Assembly: GCF_037892425.1 (NCBI RefSeq)
Contig: NZ_JBBKTT010000001.1
Location: 4,464,001-4,528,000, forward strand
DNA length: 64,000 nt
Reading direction: 5' to 3'
Origin: Lacibacter sp. H375
GTDB taxonomy: Bacteria > Bacteroidota > Bacteroidia > Chitinophagales > Chitinophagaceae
A program made the position numbers and the translations under genes. Of this stretch, positions 42,473-47,733 are shown in pieces; position 1 is the stretch's first letter; each line of letters begins with the position of its first letter. Under the pieces are notes generated by a model. That model was not told the DNA's origin, searched no databases, and saw nothing but the letters and a program-made list of their open reading frames with translations.

Positions 42473-42580
42473 GTTTGTTTTTTGTTTGATGTTGTTTCAA
42501 AGCTAGCATTTATCAATATTACTCCACAGGCGAACTGCGACAAAATACAGGTTGATTGCGGCAATGGTTTGTTGTAGTTT

Positions 42581-42787
42581 CTGGCGCAAGTGTTTCGTAG
42601 GATTATTTGTTGCAATTTATTTCTGTTCCGATGACATCGGAAACTTCAAACGCTTTACAGTCACGGTAAAGTACAAGGCCGACCATTCTTACAAATACTT
42701 TGCTTTTGTTTTTCAAATTTCCCGATACAATCGGTGCCAAATCAGTTGGCTTCAAGTGATCCTCTCAGGTGGAACACTTGCGCCAGT
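42581..42787. repeat. 207-bp inverted-repeat element containing palindromic repeat copy A
   Basis: The left end CTGGCGCAAGTGTT (42581-42594) is exactly inverted at the right end AACACTTGCGCCAG (42773-42786). The right 67 bp (42721-42787) is copy A of the dispersed repeat: a hairpin CCGAT-ACA-ATCGG, then ATCAGTTGGCTTCAAGTGAT, then CCTCTCAGGTGG, then AACACTTGCGCCAGT. The 480-nt space from 42473 to 42951 contains this element and no other gene that I can support. Confidence 0.7.
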
Positions 42788-42951
42788 GCAGGACTAACCT
42801 TGATTAAATTTCGATTTACTCGTATAGGCATACCTTTGTTTAGTTACATCTTGGCTGTACGGTTGCCGCTTTTGACAAGACAACCTGTAAGAAAGGGAAG
42901 AAATACTATGCAGCCATAAGTAAGTAATTCACTAATCTTAAATTTAAATTT

Positions 42952-43050
42952 ATGTCGAAAAAGAAAGTTGAACCCAGAAAGAATAAGCCTACTCAAAAGA
43001 AAAGCTCAGCACAGAAAAAAGCGGATCCAAAGAAAAAAGCACGTAGGTAA
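42952..43050 (+). CDS. 32-residue Lys-rich microprotein
   Basis: ATG 42952 to TAA 43048-43050 encodes 32 residues: MSKKKVEPRKNKPTQKKSSA, then Q, then a run of Lys, Ala, Asp and Pro ending ARR. About half of the residues are Lys or Arg. It is followed 11 nt later by a terminator hairpin, which supports a real transcription unit, and preceded by an AT-rich TTAAATTTAAATTT stretch. It may bind RNA, DNA or ribosomes electrostatically; no family is known to me. It lies between repeat copies A and B. Confidence 0.6.
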   Translation: MSKKKVEPRKNKPTQKKSSAQKKADPKKKARR

Positions 43051-43061
43051 AAAATGCAGAG

Positions 43062-43091
43062 AGCCCGGTTTACAGAGCCGGGTTTCTTTTT
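43062..43091 (+). terminator. terminator of the microprotein gene
   Basis: AGCCCGG (43062-43068) pairs with CCGGGTT (43078-43084; one G-T pair), loop 9 nt, followed by TCTTTTT. Confidence 0.75.
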
Positions 43092-43198
43092 ACGCCCTTT
43101 ATTCTCCGGCCTGTCTCCTGAAATGGACACGCCGTTGTTAGTTCATTGTTTCATTATGGCAAATCGGTTTAACCAGACTCGCCTGCGAAGAAAATTCA

Positions 43199-43262
43199 CC
43201 GATACTATCGGGGCTAAATCAGTTGACATAAAGTGGTCCACTTAGGTGGAACACTTGCGCCT
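43199..43262. repeat. dispersed palindromic repeat, copy B
   Basis: Begins CCGATACTATCGG (hairpin 1), then CTAAATCAGTTGACATAAAG and the cruciform TCCACTTAGGTGGA, then ACACTTGCGCC. Its right end overlaps the stop codon of the minus-strand gene at 43261. The preceding 43051-43198 has the microprotein terminator and no other supported gene. Confidence 0.75.
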
Positions 43263-45414
43263 ATGGGTGGTGTTTTGCCGTCTTTGCCGTCTTTGCCATC
43301 TCCACATCCTTTAATACTTCTGTCCGCAGATCGGTCCAATGGAAGGTTCTGTAAAAATTCTCCGGGGTTTCCTTACCACCCTGCTGGCTCAGGTGCACCA
43401 GCGGCATCCGTTCATATAAAGGCGCAGTAATGCGTATAACATCATCCCAATAAATAAGTGCCTGTTGTAAATATTGGATAGCCTGCTGTTTGTATTGCTC
43501 ACCACCACTTGTACGGTATCGTTGCAGCGCAAGGCCGCCTCTTATTTTAGCAGCAAAATGCAAACCGAGATAAGACCAGGTTTGTATATCGGCAACTTCA
43601 TAAACCAGTTGTTTGTTACCGTTAGCTTTGGTATCGATAGTACGCACCAGTTCCAATGCATTACGTCCATCCTTTTCCAACAGGTTGGCCAGTTGTAACG
43701 GTGTCAGCTTGTTTTTACTTATAACCGTATCGTTATTGATGGCCCGTACATAATCTTTAATAGAAATGTAACTTGTATCCATAGGTGGCTGGTTAATAAG
43801 TTTATCAACAGATATATAACCTACCGACTGTGTTACAGGATCTCTCGCCATCATACCTTCGGTATACAACGTAAAATCCCAACCGCAATCATAATCGGAT
43901 GCAATTCGCAAAGCAGCTTTACCTGCTAATGCAGATGCCTGCAACAGATCCTTACCCTGTTTGCCGTAACGATATATAAATTCATTATGAAACAATTGAT
44001 CGCTGCTTGTAGGGTTGTACAATAATCTTCCCCATAATTTATAAAACAACCATTGCCGTTCAAAAGCAAATTGCCGTGGCGTATTTAATGTTCCCTTGGT
44101 AAAATAATCTTTGGCAGGTATGTATGTCTCGGAGCCAATAATAAAACCACCACCCCACGAATGAGTGTTCTTTGTAACGAGATCTCTTACAAAAAAAGGA
44201 ACACCCCAACGCAAACAAAAGAAATCTTCGTTCCGTGCCGTCCACACAATTTTGTAAATGTCAGACTCCGGTTTGAAATACGTATCATACAATTTACCAC
44301 CATGTACTTTTATAAGTGTGGAAGTGGAATGTGCATGCGACCAATTGAATTTAAGATCGGCCCAGATGGGTCCTTCTAAAAAACCCATTGCAGCTTCTTC
44401 TTCCATTTTGCGGCGTGTGAGTTTTTCTGTTTCAATACTTGTTACGCCTAACGATCCTGTGGTACTGGAGAAAGGAATACGGTGTATGAGTTTTGTTTTA
44501 CGATTGGCCTGTCGCATACCTGCTATGATGGTTTCATGCATCCAGTCTTCCCGCTGTTGTGGTGTCATCCCTCCCATTCCTTCGCCCAATGTAATTCCCA
44601 TACCTGTAATCTCCGGGTATTCATTCAGCATTTGTGTTACACACTCACGGGTATAACGCTTAATAATCTCCGAGGTATCGCCATCTACAAAATAATCATG
44701 CTGCAGGTTATCCATTGCTACATTATGCGCTTTGGCAAACTCCGGCGTTACAAAAATGTTGAAGGGAATAATGTACACATCAATTGCTCTTTCACCTGCC
44801 ATGCGCATAATGCTGTGAAAAAGTGTTTGCCATTGTTTCATTTCTGCTGCTGTCCAGGGACTGGCTTCAGGAAAATTGGTGGGCTTTATTAAAAAAGTAT
44901 ATGGATGCAGATTCCATAACGTAAGACTGTTAAACCTGTTCTCCACCATCATATCAAGAAAAGATTTCCAGTACAAGGTATCTCTGCAGGTAGTATCGTG
45001 CAACTGAAGTGCATAGCTGTGGCGATAGCTGTCCCATGGTAAATCATACTTGATGGCACGCAAAGGCACAAAGGCTTTTTCTTCTCTTGGTTTGATAGTA
45101 TTTAAGGCGCTACCATTACGTACTTCTTCTGCAATTGAAAGTGCCGCATAAATCAACGCTCTGTTACTGCCGCCGGTAATGCGGATGTGATTGCCGGTAC
45201 GACTGATGGCAAAGTTTTCTTTACCATGTGCAATGCTATCCGTTACAAACGAAAAACGGAATTGCTTAGCGGTTACAAGTTTACGTAGTTGTGCAGACAG
45301 TTTTTGTACGGCATACACCTGCTGTGGCGATCGTTTATCATATTCAAATGATTGGGCAAGGCTTTGCTGCACAATTAAACCGCACAGTATCATCACGAAT
45401 AGTACTCTTATCAT
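43261..45414 (-). CDS. secreted glycoside hydrolase-like protein (GH20/GH67-type N-domain)
   Basis: This 717-residue protein has a signal peptide (MIRVLFVMILCGLIVQQSLA). The N-terminal 100 residues resemble the zincin-like domain that precedes GH20/GH67 barrels (HIRITGGSNRALIYAALSIA). The barrel part starts 'AIKYDLPWDSYRHSY' and includes 'NRFNSLTLWNLHPYTFLIKP' and 'EITGMGITLGEGMGGMTPQQ', then REDW. Candidate catalytic Glu/Asp residues are in the GEGMGG region and in 'LKFNWSHAHS'. The substrate is unknown; polysaccharide breakdown is likely. The last residues (MAKTAKTAKHHP) come from a 9-nt tandem repeat next to repeat B, so the natural C-terminus may be altered. Confidence 0.85.
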   Translation of the reverse strand: MIRVLFVMILCGLIVQQSLAQSFEYDKRSPQQVYAVQKLSAQLRKLVTAKQFRFSFVTDSIAHGKENFAISRTGNHIRITGGSNRALIYAALSIAEEVRNGSALNTIKPREEKAFVPLRAIKYDLPWDSYRHSYALQLHDTTCRDTLYWKSFLDMMVENRFNSLTLWNLHPYTFLIKPTNFPEASPWTAAEMKQWQTLFHSIMRMAGERAIDVYIIPFNIFVTPEFAKAHNVAMDNLQHDYFVDGDTSEIIKRYTRECVTQMLNEYPEITGMGITLGEGMGGMTPQQREDWMHETIIAGMRQANRKTKLIHRIPFSSTTGSLGVTSIETEKLTRRKMEEEAAMGFLEGPIWADLKFNWSHAHSTSTLIKVHGGKLYDTYFKPESDIYKIVWTARNEDFFCLRWGVPFFVRDLVTKNTHSWGGGFIIGSETYIPAKDYFTKGTLNTPRQFAFERQWLFYKLWGRLLYNPTSSDQLFHNEFIYRYGKQGKDLLQASALAGKAALRIASDYDCGWDFTLYTEGMMARDPVTQSVGYISVDKLINQPPMDTSYISIKDYVRAINNDTVISKNKLTPLQLANLLEKDGRNALELVRTIDTKANGNKQLVYEVADIQTWSYLGLHFAAKIRGGLALQRYRTSGGEQYKQQAIQYLQQALIYWDDVIRITAPLYERMPLVHLSQQGGKETPENFYRTFHWTDLRTEVLKDVEMAKTAKTAKHHP

Positions 45415-45627
45415 ATGGTCTTATGCTGATTGATAAAAAATTGATCAATCAACCAAATGAAGATAATAACAATTGAAGAAAGGATGATTAAATAAGAAGA
45501 TGCAGGATGATTGCAAACAGCAATGTAACCTACGAAGCGTCTTTACGAGGATGTGAGTTCTGTGGTAAGTTTTGTACCAAAGCAATCTTTTGTTTGCAAT
45601 TGTTATTCAATCTAAGAGATGAAAATT

Positions 45628-45667
45628 CCCCGTTTCCATCGGGATCGAATCAGTTGGCATCAAGTGG
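45628..45667. repeat. dispersed palindromic repeat, copy C (truncated)
   Basis: CCCCGTTTCCATCGGG (hairpin 1, with the loop changed to TTCC) is followed by ATCGAATCAGTTGGCATCAA and GTGG, and then stops 8 nt before the stop codon of the gene at 45675. The second half of the repeat is missing, as if cut by insertion of that gene. The rest of the 260-nt region 45415-45674 shows no gene. Confidence 0.75.
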
Positions 45668-45674
45668 GATTATT

Positions 45675-46217
45675 CTAAATGTGGCTATACACTATGTTTA
45701 AGTCACAATCTAATTTTTGCTTGAAGTCGTTTATGAAACTTTCCGTAAAACCTGGCCAATTCCAAAACCTAAAACCGAAATCACTAAAGCCCCATTCGGG
45801 TGAAAATTTAAATTGATGAATATCTGTCCCAATATTGCATAAAGGACAAGTCAAATTATTGCTTTTATTGTCGCCCCACTCGCTTAAAAAATCCCAATCT
45901 TCGTTTGCAATATCTTGTTTACAATGTGGGCAAAGAAGTACTTCTATTCCATTTTGTCCCGTATCAAAAACCTGTCGGTCAGTAATTATTTCTAATCCAT
46001 TTACACCTAATTCAAATGGTAAATATTCTGGTTCTGCCGTTATAAGTTTTGCCCCTTCGGAAATTGCATAGCCATCGGTTGAGCCAAGAACACAATCTGA
46101 CAGTGTTGGCTTAACTATGTCAAAAGAAACAAGCCATTGTAAAATTTCTTTCGCTTTAATTTCTTTGCCAGGATATTCTGATTGTCTTGGTACGATTGAA
46201 ATGCTATTATCGCTCAT
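45675..46217 (-). CDS. hypothetical double zinc-ribbon protein between two repeats
   Basis: This 180-residue soluble protein has two Cys pairs, LCPHC (about residues 94-98) and TCPLC (about 123-127), spaced as one zinc ribbon, followed by Trp/Phe-rich 'HQFKFSPEWGFSDFGFRFWN' and 'WPGFTESFINDFKQKLDC'. The N-terminal part 'YPGKEIKAKEILQWLVSFDI' is helical. The product resembles a conserved bacterial protein sometimes labelled 'sugar ABC transporter ATPase' without basis: no Walker motif is present. It is flanked by repeat copies C and D, and its 3' end abuts C. Confidence 0.78.
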   Translation of the reverse strand: MSDNSISIVPRQSEYPGKEIKAKEILQWLVSFDIVKPTLSDCVLGSTDGYAISEGAKLITAEPEYLPFELGVNGLEIITDRQVFDTGQNGIEVLLCPHCKQDIANEDWDFLSEWGDNKSNNLTCPLCNIGTDIHQFKFSPEWGFSDFGFRFWNWPGFTESFINDFKQKLDCDLNIVYSHI

Positions 46218-46276
46218 ATTTTATAATCAGATTTAAGTTATGTGGTGTGCCAATGCTCAGTTTTTTTTCTCAAATT

Positions 46277-46344
46277 CCTTGATACAATCAGGGACGAATC
46301 AGTTGGCATCAAGTGATCCACTGAGGTGGAACACTTGCGTCAGT
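46277..46344. repeat. dispersed palindromic repeat, copy D
   Basis: CCTTGATACAATCAGGG (hairpin 1, with changes on both arms that keep pairing) leads to ACGAATCAGTTGGCATCAAG, then TGATCCACTGAGGTGGAACA and CTTGCGTCAGT. The core pairs as CAAGTG/CACTTG and TCCAC/GTGGA around TGAG. It ends 16 nt before the stop codon of the minus-strand gene at 46360. Confidence 0.8.
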
Positions 46345-46359
46345 AGAGTGGCGACTTCA

Positions 46360-47652
46360 TCACATCTTTTTGCCAAACCACATAGAAAACTGATTCTTAC
46401 TAATGTCCATTTCCAAAGAATGATAAAACTCCCGTTTAATAACAATTTGAATCTTCTTTGTGTCTATTCCAAGGGAGACTAAAATCAACGCTCTCATAAA
46501 TATCCGGACAACCTTATTTATTTCATATAGCTGAAAAATAGTCCACACAAATGACTTCTCATCATAGTGAGTGTAATAATTTCGTGAATCAAGTAAATAA
46601 CTAAGAAATTCCTTTTTCTCTAACGGCAGATCAATCTTCAACCCTTCGCTCTCAAGAATACTAAAAAAATGAAAGTAACGCATCATATTAGTCCATTCTT
46701 TTCTTTTATTATTCTGCAAACCAAATTCCACATCCACCTCGCTCTTTATTCTATCACGAAGTTCCACGTCATCTTCATAAAAATACTTGTGAAGAACTTC
46801 AATAGATTGAGTTAGATATAGAAATATTATTTCCGGGTTATTTGACTTCAATCCAGTCTCCCACAGAGAAACGACTTGATCAAACTTCTCTCTTTGTGAA
46901 AAATATTTTTGAACTACTACACTAAAATTTTCCACCTCATTATATTGAAGCAAAACATGAAATCTACTCTCTTCGAAATCAACTTCACTAAGAATTAAGT
47001 TTACGAATTGCACACCTCTTTCAAAGACGAGTTTTTTTGTATTAGGTACAACTGTCAAAAAAAGGGTGTAAAAATTAAGCAGCGAATAATAAGCAGCGAA
47101 TAATCTATTTCTCGACGTCGGATTGGCTGCATAAACCGTCATAGAAACATCTTCAAAAAATCTAACCTCACCCGACTTTAAACTAAAATGCGGCCTCAAT
47201 AAAAACTTCAAAAAATATTCTTCAGATAAAAAGTATTCGATCGAAACCTCATTGCCAATACTAACTGAAATTAATTTCTCTCCTCCTTTTTCATGGGAAA
47301 TATCAATAAGCTTTGGAGGTATCCAGTTAGACATATTTGTTACCTCTGCGTTTAAACTTGTATAGGCTTTGCTATCAAATAAATCATCCACGATATTATC
47401 ATAAAGTTCATTTATTATGTAAGAAACCTTATTGCCATTACTTTTCGAAAAGATGCTCTGAATAAGCGTAAAGTTTTGCTTTGGGGAATAGCAAAACATT
47501 ATAGGGATTGTATCAAATGACATTCTCCCATAAGGATGTTCCGAAAATTCAATCACTTTTTGTTTTGAGGAAATAATTAAAACACCTAACATTTCCTTTC
47601 CTTCTAAATCTGGTATGATTACTTTAACATGCAATGTGTTGTTTTCATCCAT
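46360..47652 (-). CDS. ApeA-like HEPN-domain protein, candidate anti-phage factor
   Basis: The start is ATG 47652 (430 residues; the longer frame begins with TTG). The N-terminal about 210 residues are a beta-rich domain resembling ApeA N-domains (CYSPKQNFTLIQSIFSKSNG in the middle). The C-terminal about 200 residues are helical, with 'FLYLTQSIEVLHKYFYEDD' and 'EFLSYLLDSRNYYTHYDEKS' carrying the HEPN signature R-N-x3-H (Arg357, His362). HEPN proteins are typically RNases that act in toxin-antitoxin and phage defence; ApeA is an abortive single-gene defence. AT-rich relative to neighbours, and next to repeat D, so probably acquired. Defence function here is inference. Confidence 0.75.
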   Translation of the reverse strand: MDENNTLHVKVIIPDLEGKEMLGVLIISSKQKVIEFSEHPYGRMSFDTIPIMFCYSPKQNFTLIQSIFSKSNGNKVSYIINELYDNIVDDLFDSKAYTSLNAEVTNMSNWIPPKLIDISHEKGGEKLISVSIGNEVSIEYFLSEEYFLKFLLRPHFSLKSGEVRFFEDVSMTVYAANPTSRNRLFAAYYSLLNFYTLFLTVVPNTKKLVFERGVQFVNLILSEVDFEESRFHVLLQYNEVENFSVVVQKYFSQREKFDQVVSLWETGLKSNNPEIIFLYLTQSIEVLHKYFYEDDVELRDRIKSEVDVEFGLQNNKRKEWTNMMRYFHFFSILESEGLKIDLPLEKKEFLSYLLDSRNYYTHYDEKSFVWTIFQLYEINKVVRIFMRALILVSLGIDTKKIQIVIKREFYHSLEMDISKNQFSMWFGKKM

Positions 47653-47733
47653 AATCAAAACTCAGTTTTTATTAACAATAGATAGCTTGACATTTACTGC
47701 ATCCACTACCAAGAGAAATTCGCTTTAGGCATC

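What the first reader, a model, noticed from the sequence alone, without database searches (positions are those of the whole stretch)
42721..46344. Four copies of an undescribed palindromic repeat in 3.7 kb, tracking gene 3' ends
Copies at 42721-42787 (A), 43199-43262 (B), 45628-45667 (C, truncated) and 46277-46344 (D) share a two-part structure: a short hairpin (CCGAT-n3-ATCGG; both arms change together in D) and a longer cruciform AGTTGGC-AT-CAAGTG-AT-CCAC-n4-GTGG-AA-CACTTG-C-GCCAGT. Arm changes are compensatory, which suggests selection on folded single-stranded DNA or RNA rather than on sequence. B, C and D sit at or within about 16 nt of the stop codon of three successive minus-strand genes. 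Possible identities: recombination sites of a cassette system, REP-like elements, or a terminator family.
Basis: partly seen in the sequence, partly recalled or inferred. Interest (0 to 1): 0.7.

Follow-up and report, generated by a model that had tools for sequence, protein, structure and literature searches.

The report
Orphan copies of RAYT-linked hairpin repeats
These repeats are leftover copies of a small hairpin-shaped mobile DNA element that, in related bacteria, sits on both sides of the gene for a single-strand-DNA-cutting enzyme, so the find is a new form of a known kind of bacterial repeat and most likely not a gene-cassette system.

Summary
The window's genome shows six copies in all and no Y1/RAYT transposase. 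A covariance model of the repeat finds the same two-hairpin unit beside REP-associated tyrosine transposase (RAYT) genes. In 15 of 16 loci whose RAYT is at least 65% identical to the query, an inverted pair brackets the gene; 13 of 14 without the two loci used for training. The RAYTs pass NCBIfam's REP_Tyr_transpos cut-off (two tested) and match most features of published subclass 2.6, a Bacteroidetes group "flanked by atypical secondary structures". Both hairpins covary. CCAG, not the complement of GT[AG]G, follows hairpins in 73 of 151 RAYT flanks against 15 of 550 control stretches. The doublet is absent at the same place in a congener. Best reading: an orphan REPIN plus three decayed singlets. 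The cassette idea is not supported (0 of 9 outside homologues examined of the gene between C and D carry the repeat), but the genes beside the repeat do differ in all four congeners compared.

The parts
42581..42786 (.). Complete inverted doublet (REPIN-like unit), CTGG...CCAG, 206 bp
   Evidence: Aligns end to end with 8 other doublets from 6 congeners; absent at the same place in G160
42580..42651 (-).
   Evidence: R1 37.4 bits, E 2e-6
42711..42787 (+). Right half of the doublet (copy A): hairpin 1 at 42722-42734, hairpin 2 at 42753-42780, CCAG at 42783-42786
   Evidence: Sequence; R1 91.8 bits
43188..43264 (+). Copy B, singlet; its end overlaps the stop codon of the 717-aa ORF
   Evidence: R1 76 bits; no left partner with filters off
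45619..45667 (+). Copy C, truncated singlet (hairpin 2 broken near the junction with the 180-aa ORF)
   Evidence: R1 24.6 bits, E 0.003, match drawn to 45703 with a broken 3' part
46268..46344 (+). Copy D, singlet; compensatory change in hairpin 1, CCAG mutated to TCAG
   Evidence: R1 90.5 bits
43261..45414 (-). 717-aa ORF between B and C; distant to alpha-D-galacturonidase; at E<=1e-40 found only in this genome of 14 in the genus
   Evidence: NF049878 143 bits, below its cut-off of 1300
45675..46217 (-). 180-aa ORF between C and D, patchy in the family
   Evidence: 11 of 294 genomes, this one included
46360..47658 (-). 432-aa ORF with an Apea-like HEPN domain, next to D
   Evidence: PF18739 38.8 bits
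47734..50874 (-). 1,046-aa anchor gene shared with three congeners (G160, G292, G083); the genes beside its 3' end differ in all four
   Evidence: L085 16735-19875

Best explanation
The copies belong to a Bacteroidota REP family whose partner enzyme is a REP-associated tyrosine transposase (RAYT) of the subclass 2.6 type. One REP half is: short hairpin 1, a linker, longer hairpin 2, then CCAG. Read on the other strand it is a 5'-CTGG foot at or about 2 nt from the base of hairpin 2, followed by hairpin 1. Two halves face away from each other, giving CTGG-hairpin2-hairpin1-spacer-hairpin1-hairpin2-CCAG. This unit exists with a RAYT gene as its middle, or as a roughly 200-bp doublet without a gene. 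Inferred mechanism: the RAYT recognises the folded single strand by foot and hairpin, cuts it with its HuH/tyrosine chemistry and moves or copies doublets in trans. The window's genome now shows no such enzyme, so A is a stranded, once mobile REPIN and B, C and D are decayed singlets. Shown: anatomy, pairing, RAYT bracketing, an empty site, no enzyme found. Inferred: binding, cleavage, mobilisation in trans, loss of the enzyme in this lineage.
For: RAYT bracketing: of 79 RAYT loci (the best of 244), 26 have R1 hits in the expected inverted order on both sides, 14 on one, 39 on none; at RAYT identity of at least 65% it is 15 of 16 both, and the last has one. Of 105 hits in those loci, 75 lie within 300 nt of the RAYT in the expected orientation, 9 in the opposite one, 21 elsewhere. 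Two of the 16 loci (L158, L170) gave training sequences (without them 13 of 14); a third (L163) is from a genome that gave other copies. Of 34 testable loci among the 39 misses, 28 have a flanking inverted repeat above 60 shuffles, some only marginally. Enzyme: NF047646 REP_Tyr_transpos 97.7 and 87.2 bits, cut-off 80; profile A3 finds only 4er8 TnpArep in the PDB, E 2.3e-4; the 30 best fold matches are, by title, transposases, mostly ISDra2 and IS608, with 4er8 at rank 8. Covariation: 15 of 16 pairs with a double change, 0 of 500 shuffles reach the score (alignment fitted to the model), and 7 of 19 on the unfitted MAFFT alignment. Foot: CCAG 73/151 near against 15/550 far. Mobility: empty site in G160; in G292 and G213 the BLASTN similarity to the A region stops at the doublet. 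Co-occurrence: repeat in 24 of 117 family genomes with a RAYT at E<=1e-30 against 11 of 177 without; 10 of 15 against 25 of 279 for the closest RAYTs. No Y1 transposase found in the own genome (each of the two family searches rang in 6 of 14 control genomes, one search had no control).
Against: No binding, cleavage or movement was observed. Copy number is low (0 to 21 per genome in the genus, a lower bound since 150 candidates per genome were scored), unlike classical REPs. The GT[AG]G foot is absent. 11 of 35 repeat-bearing family genomes have no RAYT at E<=1e-30, the own genome included; G292 has 10 copies and no RAYT at 1e-5, and G160 has 6 copies with only distant RAYTs (about 32% identical); so loss or horizontal spread must be assumed. 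Conversely G298 and G301 have RAYTs about 50% identical and no R1 copy. 39 of 79 RAYT loci give no R1 hit. CTGG is exact at the left end of only 5 of 9 aligned doublets, CCAG at the right end of 9 of 9. The RAYTs do not match every published 2.6 motif. Why B, C and D are all right-type singlets pointing the same way is not explained.
Confidence: 0.88

Rival explanations
1. Recombination sites of a gene-cassette system: each copy marks the 3' end of a mobile gene cassette, as attC sites do in integrons.
For: B, C and D abut the stops of three successive same-strand ORFs. The 717-aa gene is in 1 of 14 congeners and the 180-aa gene in 11 of 294 family genomes. Between the repeat unit and the 3' end of the conserved anchor gene lie different genes in G000, G160, G292 and G083; G083 too has a broken remnant there (28-nt BLASTN match, E 5e-5; R1 11.2 bits, E 0.09), in the same orientation towards the anchor as B-D.
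Against: 0 of 9 outside homologues examined (of 10) of the 180-aa gene carry the repeat. No integron integrase over the cut-off (six partial matches below it; it also rang below cut-off in 14 of 14 controls and above it in none, so the search has no positive control). The repeats bracket RAYTs elsewhere. Gene content is just as unshared away from the copies: 2 of 13 ORFs in L085 1-10570 have a counterpart at 70% or more in the three congeners' stretches. Foot orientation in the genus is near even: 24 of 38.
Confidence: 0.05
2. A transcription terminator or RNA-stability element that simply sits at gene 3' ends.
For: Two covarying hairpins near stops; two of the four terminator-like matches overlap hairpin 1 of B and C on the minus strand.
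Against: 4 terminator-like sites against 2.9 expected; no Rfam family in the window; outward CTGG/CCAG ends, doublets and RAYT bracketing are not expected of a terminator; intergenic types match the background (10 convergent, 31 tandem, 6 divergent of 47). A secondary role in RNA ends remains possible.
Confidence: 0.04
3. A MITE derived from an ordinary insertion sequence (DDE transposase or true IS200/IS605) and not from a RAYT.
For: 206-bp unit with inverted ends and a spacer.
Against: The matching full-length unit encodes a protein over the REP_Tyr_transpos cut-off and under the IS200/IS605 one (27.3 and 29.1 bits against 55). 28 of 30 units tested show no flanking direct repeat within 200 nt.
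Confidence: 0.03

Closest known systems
TnpA-REP/RAYT subclass 2.6 (= Bertels RAYT group 5) and its 'atypical secondary structures', PMC6006769 (passages read; supplements not seen)
   Same: Bacteroidetes; about 180 aa; HuH-to-Y spacing 82 residues; C-terminal SS; gene flanked by secondary structures without GT[AG]G, with copies elsewhere in the genome
   Different: Here the structures get a defined anatomy (two covarying hairpins, linker, CTGG foot, outward ends, gene-free doublets) and are found stranded in a genome in which no RAYT was found. The paper calls the structures weaker; the string CTGG is not in its main text.
TIRtrons: RAYT-like genes flanked by long inverted repeats unrelated to GTAG REPs, some 'double palindromic', with repeat families in some genomes, PMC3733652 (passages)
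   Same: Tyrosine transposase bracketed by non-GTAG repeats, some with two palindromes, with solitary copies
   Different: The passages seen name other phyla and a GGGGWSAS motif; the figures were not seen, so identity of type cannot be judged
REPINs, PMC3116915 (passages read)
   Same: Inverted REP doublet with a spacer, extragenic; singlets read there as defunct remnants; excision of doublets
   Different: Unit is longer (206 bp against 71 and 110 bp), two hairpins per half, few copies, other foot
GTAG REPs and REPtrons, PMC2817692 and PMC8266576 (passages)
   Same: RAYT bracketed by two inverted palindromic repeats; foot at the base of the hairpin
   Different: Foot CTGG, not GTAG or GTGG; low copy number
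Integron attC sites / cassette arrays (recalled)
   Same: Folded single-strand sites near gene 3' ends
   Different: No integrase over the cut-off; the repeat was not seen to travel with a gene; RAYT partner

Membership tests
REP element / REPtron | RAYT gene bracketed by two inverted copies | tested here: met
   26 of 79 loci both sides, 14 one, 39 none; 15 of 16 at RAYT identity >=65%. In relatives only: no RAYT was found in the own genome.
REP element / REPtron | GT[AG]G foot at the hairpin base | tested here: not met
   0 of 105 seven-base tails; CGCCAG exact in 70 of 105. Reverse complements CTAC 7/151 and CCAC 2/151 near against 11/550 and 6/550 far; CCAG 73/151 against 15/550
REP element / REPtron | Extragenic position | tested here: met
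   0 of 49 genus units lie inside an ORF (simple ORF calling, 75 aa or more; 3 weak hits left out, copy C added)
REP element / REPtron | High copy number (usually >100 per genome) | tested here: not met
   0 to 21 matches per genome in 14 congeners, a lower bound
REP element / REPtron | Palindrome kept by compensatory change | tested here: met
REPIN | Inverted doublets | tested here: met
   9 of 49 genus units, copy A included; the nine align end to end
RAYT subclass 2.6 | NH[LIV]H motif, HuH-Y spacing about 82, about 179 aa, C-terminal SS, Bacteroidetes | tested here: met
   NH[VIL]H in 12 of 13 (one NHFH), S164 and S165 invariant; 17 proteins of 157-213 aa, most 181-187; spacing 82 in the one measured; the 79 named loci carry Bacteroidota names (phylum of the genera recalled)
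RAYT subclass 2.6 | WQ and YIH[QN]NP motifs | tested here: inconclusive
   W invariant, followed by K, R, Q or E; YLH[ENQ]NP
RAYT subclass 2.6 | Position in the published tree | not tested
   The paper's sequences were not on hand
RAYT (enzyme) | Cuts its REP as single strand | not testable with these tools
   Needs purified protein
Integron cassette array | Integron integrase in the genome | tested here: inconclusive
   Six partial matches, none over the TIGR02249 cut-off; none of 14 controls over it either
Integron cassette array | Repeat travels with the gene | tested here: not met
   0 of 9 homologues examined carry the repeat (one gene tested)
Any Rfam family | Score at or above the gathering cut-off | tested here: not met
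   0 matches in the window

The most novel reading that the evidence does not exclude
The 'atypical' subclass 2.6 RAYTs of Bacteroidota use a different address from the RAYTs studied so far: a 5'-CTGG foot plus a second, independently covarying hairpin. If the foot acts as the guide, as shown for a Marinomonas RAYT (PMC8266576, where GTGG moved cutting to CC), CTGG predicts cutting at C|C or C|A, not C|T; that would be a second guide code for REP mobilisation. REP singlets such as B-D could then also be the places where accessory genes settle: in all four congeners compared at the anchor gene, a copy or remnant in the same orientation bounds a different set of genes.
Probability: 0.3. Interest if true: 0.6.

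Novelty: new variant of a known kind. Interest (0 to 1): 0.42.

Why it matters
REPs are a leading case of a domesticated transposase keeping short repeats alive in bacterial genomes, but the Bacteroidota branch was left as 'atypical' in the one paper I found on it. A defined anatomy with a searchable covariance model turns it into something that can be counted, dated and tested in vitro. A lineage with copies but no enzyme found is a natural test of whether REPs move without a RAYT.

Tried and rejected
Rfam gave nothing. BLASTN in the own genome missed the left half of A and the far copy at 4,565 kb; the covariance model found both. Left partners for B, C and D were sought with filters off; apart from the left half of A and reverse readings of hairpin 2, no minus-strand match there exceeded 8 bits. 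A foot-linker helix (GGC/GCC) covaries only weakly: 71% of cells paired, 48 of 98 cells at the middle pair unpaired; I do not claim it as part of the fold. A shared target sequence outside the foot was sought in 105 flanks: only mild purine richness. Target duplications: 2 of 30 units. A preference for convergent intergenic regions: none. An argument I first made and dropped: that congener G083 is variable at the anchor gene without any copy. Searches show a broken remnant there, so this no longer counts against cassettes; I raised that rival from 0.03 to 0.05 and lowered the main reading from 0.90 to 0.88 for it. Literature: (RAYT or TnpAREP with Bacteroidetes) listed PMC6006769, PMC3733652 and one unrelated paper; (Chitinophaga with REP) listed none; two searches listed wider RAYT papers, of which I read passages of five in all. 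Supplements could not be read.

Full report
Observation. The four copies are present at the stated places. With up to 3 mismatches the 19-base core pattern occurs four times in 64 kb (0.24 expected) and the 20-base right end three times (0.00 expected). A, B and D fold 3.5 to 4.0 SD below shuffles as DNA; truncated C does not (z -0.44). Nothing in Rfam matches the window. BLASTN finds these four and one 17-base match in the 5.08-Mb genome. A covariance model (R1) built from 19 copies of nine genomes finds two more: an inverted partner of A at 42580-42651 (-), and one at contig position 4,565,110, outside the window. With C, that makes six copies seen in the genome, five of them in 3.8 kb.

Anatomy. 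Each half reads, in the window's + direction, hairpin 1 (5 bp or more, 3-nt loop), a linker of about 18 nt, hairpin 2 (6 bp, 1-nt internal loop, up to 5 bp), then CGCCAG. On the first alignment (MAFFT, 19 rows, not fitted to the structure) 91.2% of cells pair and 7 of 19 pairs change on both sides; 0 of 500 shuffles reach the covariation score, though 84 of 500 reach the number of pair types. On 105 matches from RAYT loci, an alignment fitted to the model and so leaning towards it, 95.1% of cells pair and 15 of 16 pairs change on both sides. Both hairpins covary, so the structure looks to be under selection. Nine doublets from seven genomes, given with about 10 nt of flank on each side, align end to end over about 200 bp; CCAG closes the right end in 9 of 9, CTGG opens the left end exactly in 5 of 9. 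Element A is therefore read as 42581-42786.

Partner enzyme. In two relatives (G284, G258) the inverted pair encloses an ORF that matches NCBIfam REP_Tyr_transpos at 97.7 and 87.2 bits (cut-off 80), and IS200/IS605 only far below its cut-off. A scan of the collection of 84,980 species genomes with an alignment of 13 such proteins found 244 relatives and kept the best 79 loci. R1 then found 105 hits in 0.6 Mb: 75 within 300 nt of the RAYT with the foot pointing away from it, 9 near it but opposite, 21 elsewhere. By RAYT identity, both sides are occupied in 15 of 16 loci (65% or more), 5 of 14 (60-64%), 3 of 20 (57-59%) and 3 of 29 (49-56%); loci with short flanks were not left out. Two of the 16 loci supplied training sequences; without them it is 13 of 14. 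Among the 39 loci without a hit, 34 could be tested for any inverted repeat between the flanks and 28 exceed 60 shuffles, some marginally; several show the same plan with other stems, others look quite different. The proteins fit subclass 2.6 of PMC6006769 in length, HuH-Y spacing (82), C-terminal SS and host phylum; the WQ motif fits only loosely. The solved RAYT 4er8 is the only PDB sequence match at E<=0.01 (E 2.3e-4). The predicted fold (mean pLDDT 75) matches ISDra2 first, IS608 and 4er8 (rank 8) at modest TM-scores (0.42-0.52 by query).

The foot. Without using R1, I listed every tetranucleotide 0-3 nt after a perfect 6-nt hairpin arm in the 250 nt on either side of each RAYT. CCAG tops the list: 73 of 151 segments against 15 of 550 control segments from the same loci. 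The reverse complements of GTAG and GTGG are not clearly enriched (7 and 2 of 151 against 11 and 6 of 550; p 0.08 and 0.68). The loci are related, so p-values overstate this; the contrast between motifs is the point. PMC6006769 says these structures lack GT[AG]G and are weaker; the string CTGG is not in its main text. Its supplements could not be read, and PMC3733652 mentions RAYT-like genes with 'double palindromic' terminal repeats whose figures I have not seen.

Mobility and loss. At the A site the congener G160 has homologous sequence on both sides and no doublet; about 17 nt left of the unit is also unmatched. G160 has its own doublet about 360 nt further on, near the place of B. In G292 and G213 the BLASTN similarity to the A region is confined to the doublet. 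No direct repeat within 200 nt flanks 28 of 30 units tested; two have repeats of 104 and 43 nt. No RAYT or Y1 transposase was found in the own genome by three searches (the two family searches each rang in 6 of 14 controls). In the genus, the two genomes with the closest RAYTs (G258, G294) hold 3 and 21 copies; G292 holds 10 with no RAYT at 1e-5, G160 holds 6 with only distant ones, and G298 and G301 have RAYTs about 50% identical and no copy. In 294 family genomes the repeat is found in 24 of 117 with a RAYT at E<=1e-30 and in 11 of 177 without (p 4e-4, not corrected for ancestry; the repeat search used strict filters, so counts are lower bounds).

Gene context. For 49 units in the genus (9 doublets, 40 singles, RAYT-flanking ones included; three weak hits left out), 0 lie inside an ORF. 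Neighbour types match the background, and single units face a gene 3' end with their foot in 24 of 38 cases (p 0.14); within 50 nt it is 14 of 17 (p 0.013), or 11 of 14 without B, C and D (p 0.057). Between the repeat and the 3' end of the conserved 1,046-aa gene lie different genes in G000, G160, G292 and G083. G083 has no R1 match at E<=0.01, but a broken remnant (28 nt by BLASTN, E 5e-5; R1 11.2 bits, E 0.09) in the same orientation towards that gene. So four of four congeners compared here have a copy or remnant beside a variable stretch; but gene content is as little shared away from the copies (2 of 13 ORFs in L085 1-10570 with a counterpart at 70% or more in the stretches compared). The 717-aa gene is in 1 of 14 congeners at E<=1e-40; the 180-aa gene is in 11 of 294 family genomes, and none of the 9 homologues examined, of 10 outside, has a repeat at E below 0.4 within the stretch held. 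So the region is variable, but the repeat was not seen to travel with a gene.

Conclusion. The repeat works like, and is anatomically tied to, the REPs of RAYTs. By the strict GTAG definition and by copy number it is not a classical REP; it fits the published but barely described 'atypical' structures of RAYT subclass 2.6. Steps shown: structure, pairing, bracketing, an empty site, no enzyme found. Steps inferred: single-strand recognition, cutting, movement in trans, decay of B-D. Unexplained: why three right-type singlets in the same orientation each abut an accessory gene, and why a fourth congener keeps a similar remnant at the same anchor.

Noticed in passing
L010 725-828 and 1592-1695 (G284); L156 (43-nt pair): Direct repeats of 104 nt (99% identical) and 43 nt bracket a RAYT unit, unlike IS200/IS605 insertions, which leave no target duplication (recalled). 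2 of 30 units tested.
   Followed up: partly
L019 735-1541 (G284 C23): An ORF starts with about 32 residues of a RAYT N-terminus and continues as an Rhs-like C-terminus (by eye), beside a repeat copy: a RAYT fragment fused into another gene, or an assembly join.
   Followed up: no
L095 9829-9891 (G083 C1:149863-149890): Broken repeat remnant near the same anchor gene as in the window, cut inside hairpin 2 like copy C.
   Followed up: partly
window 46360-47658: 432-aa protein with an Apea-like HEPN domain (PF18739), possibly a defence gene, next to copy D.
   Followed up: no
window 45675-46217: 180-aa family without a Pfam or NCBIfam match, in 11 of 294 family genomes from 11 genera, and in none of the five other congeners of that sample: looks horizontally spread.
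   Followed up: partly
window 43061-43085: A genuine-looking intrinsic terminator between A and B, with similar sequence in G160.
   Followed up: no
L197, L191, L230 (RAYT flanks): Other RAYTs carry quite different, very stable inverted repeats (L230: a 135-nt repeat, -64 kcal/mol as RNA), so this enzyme group has several repeat types.
   Followed up: no
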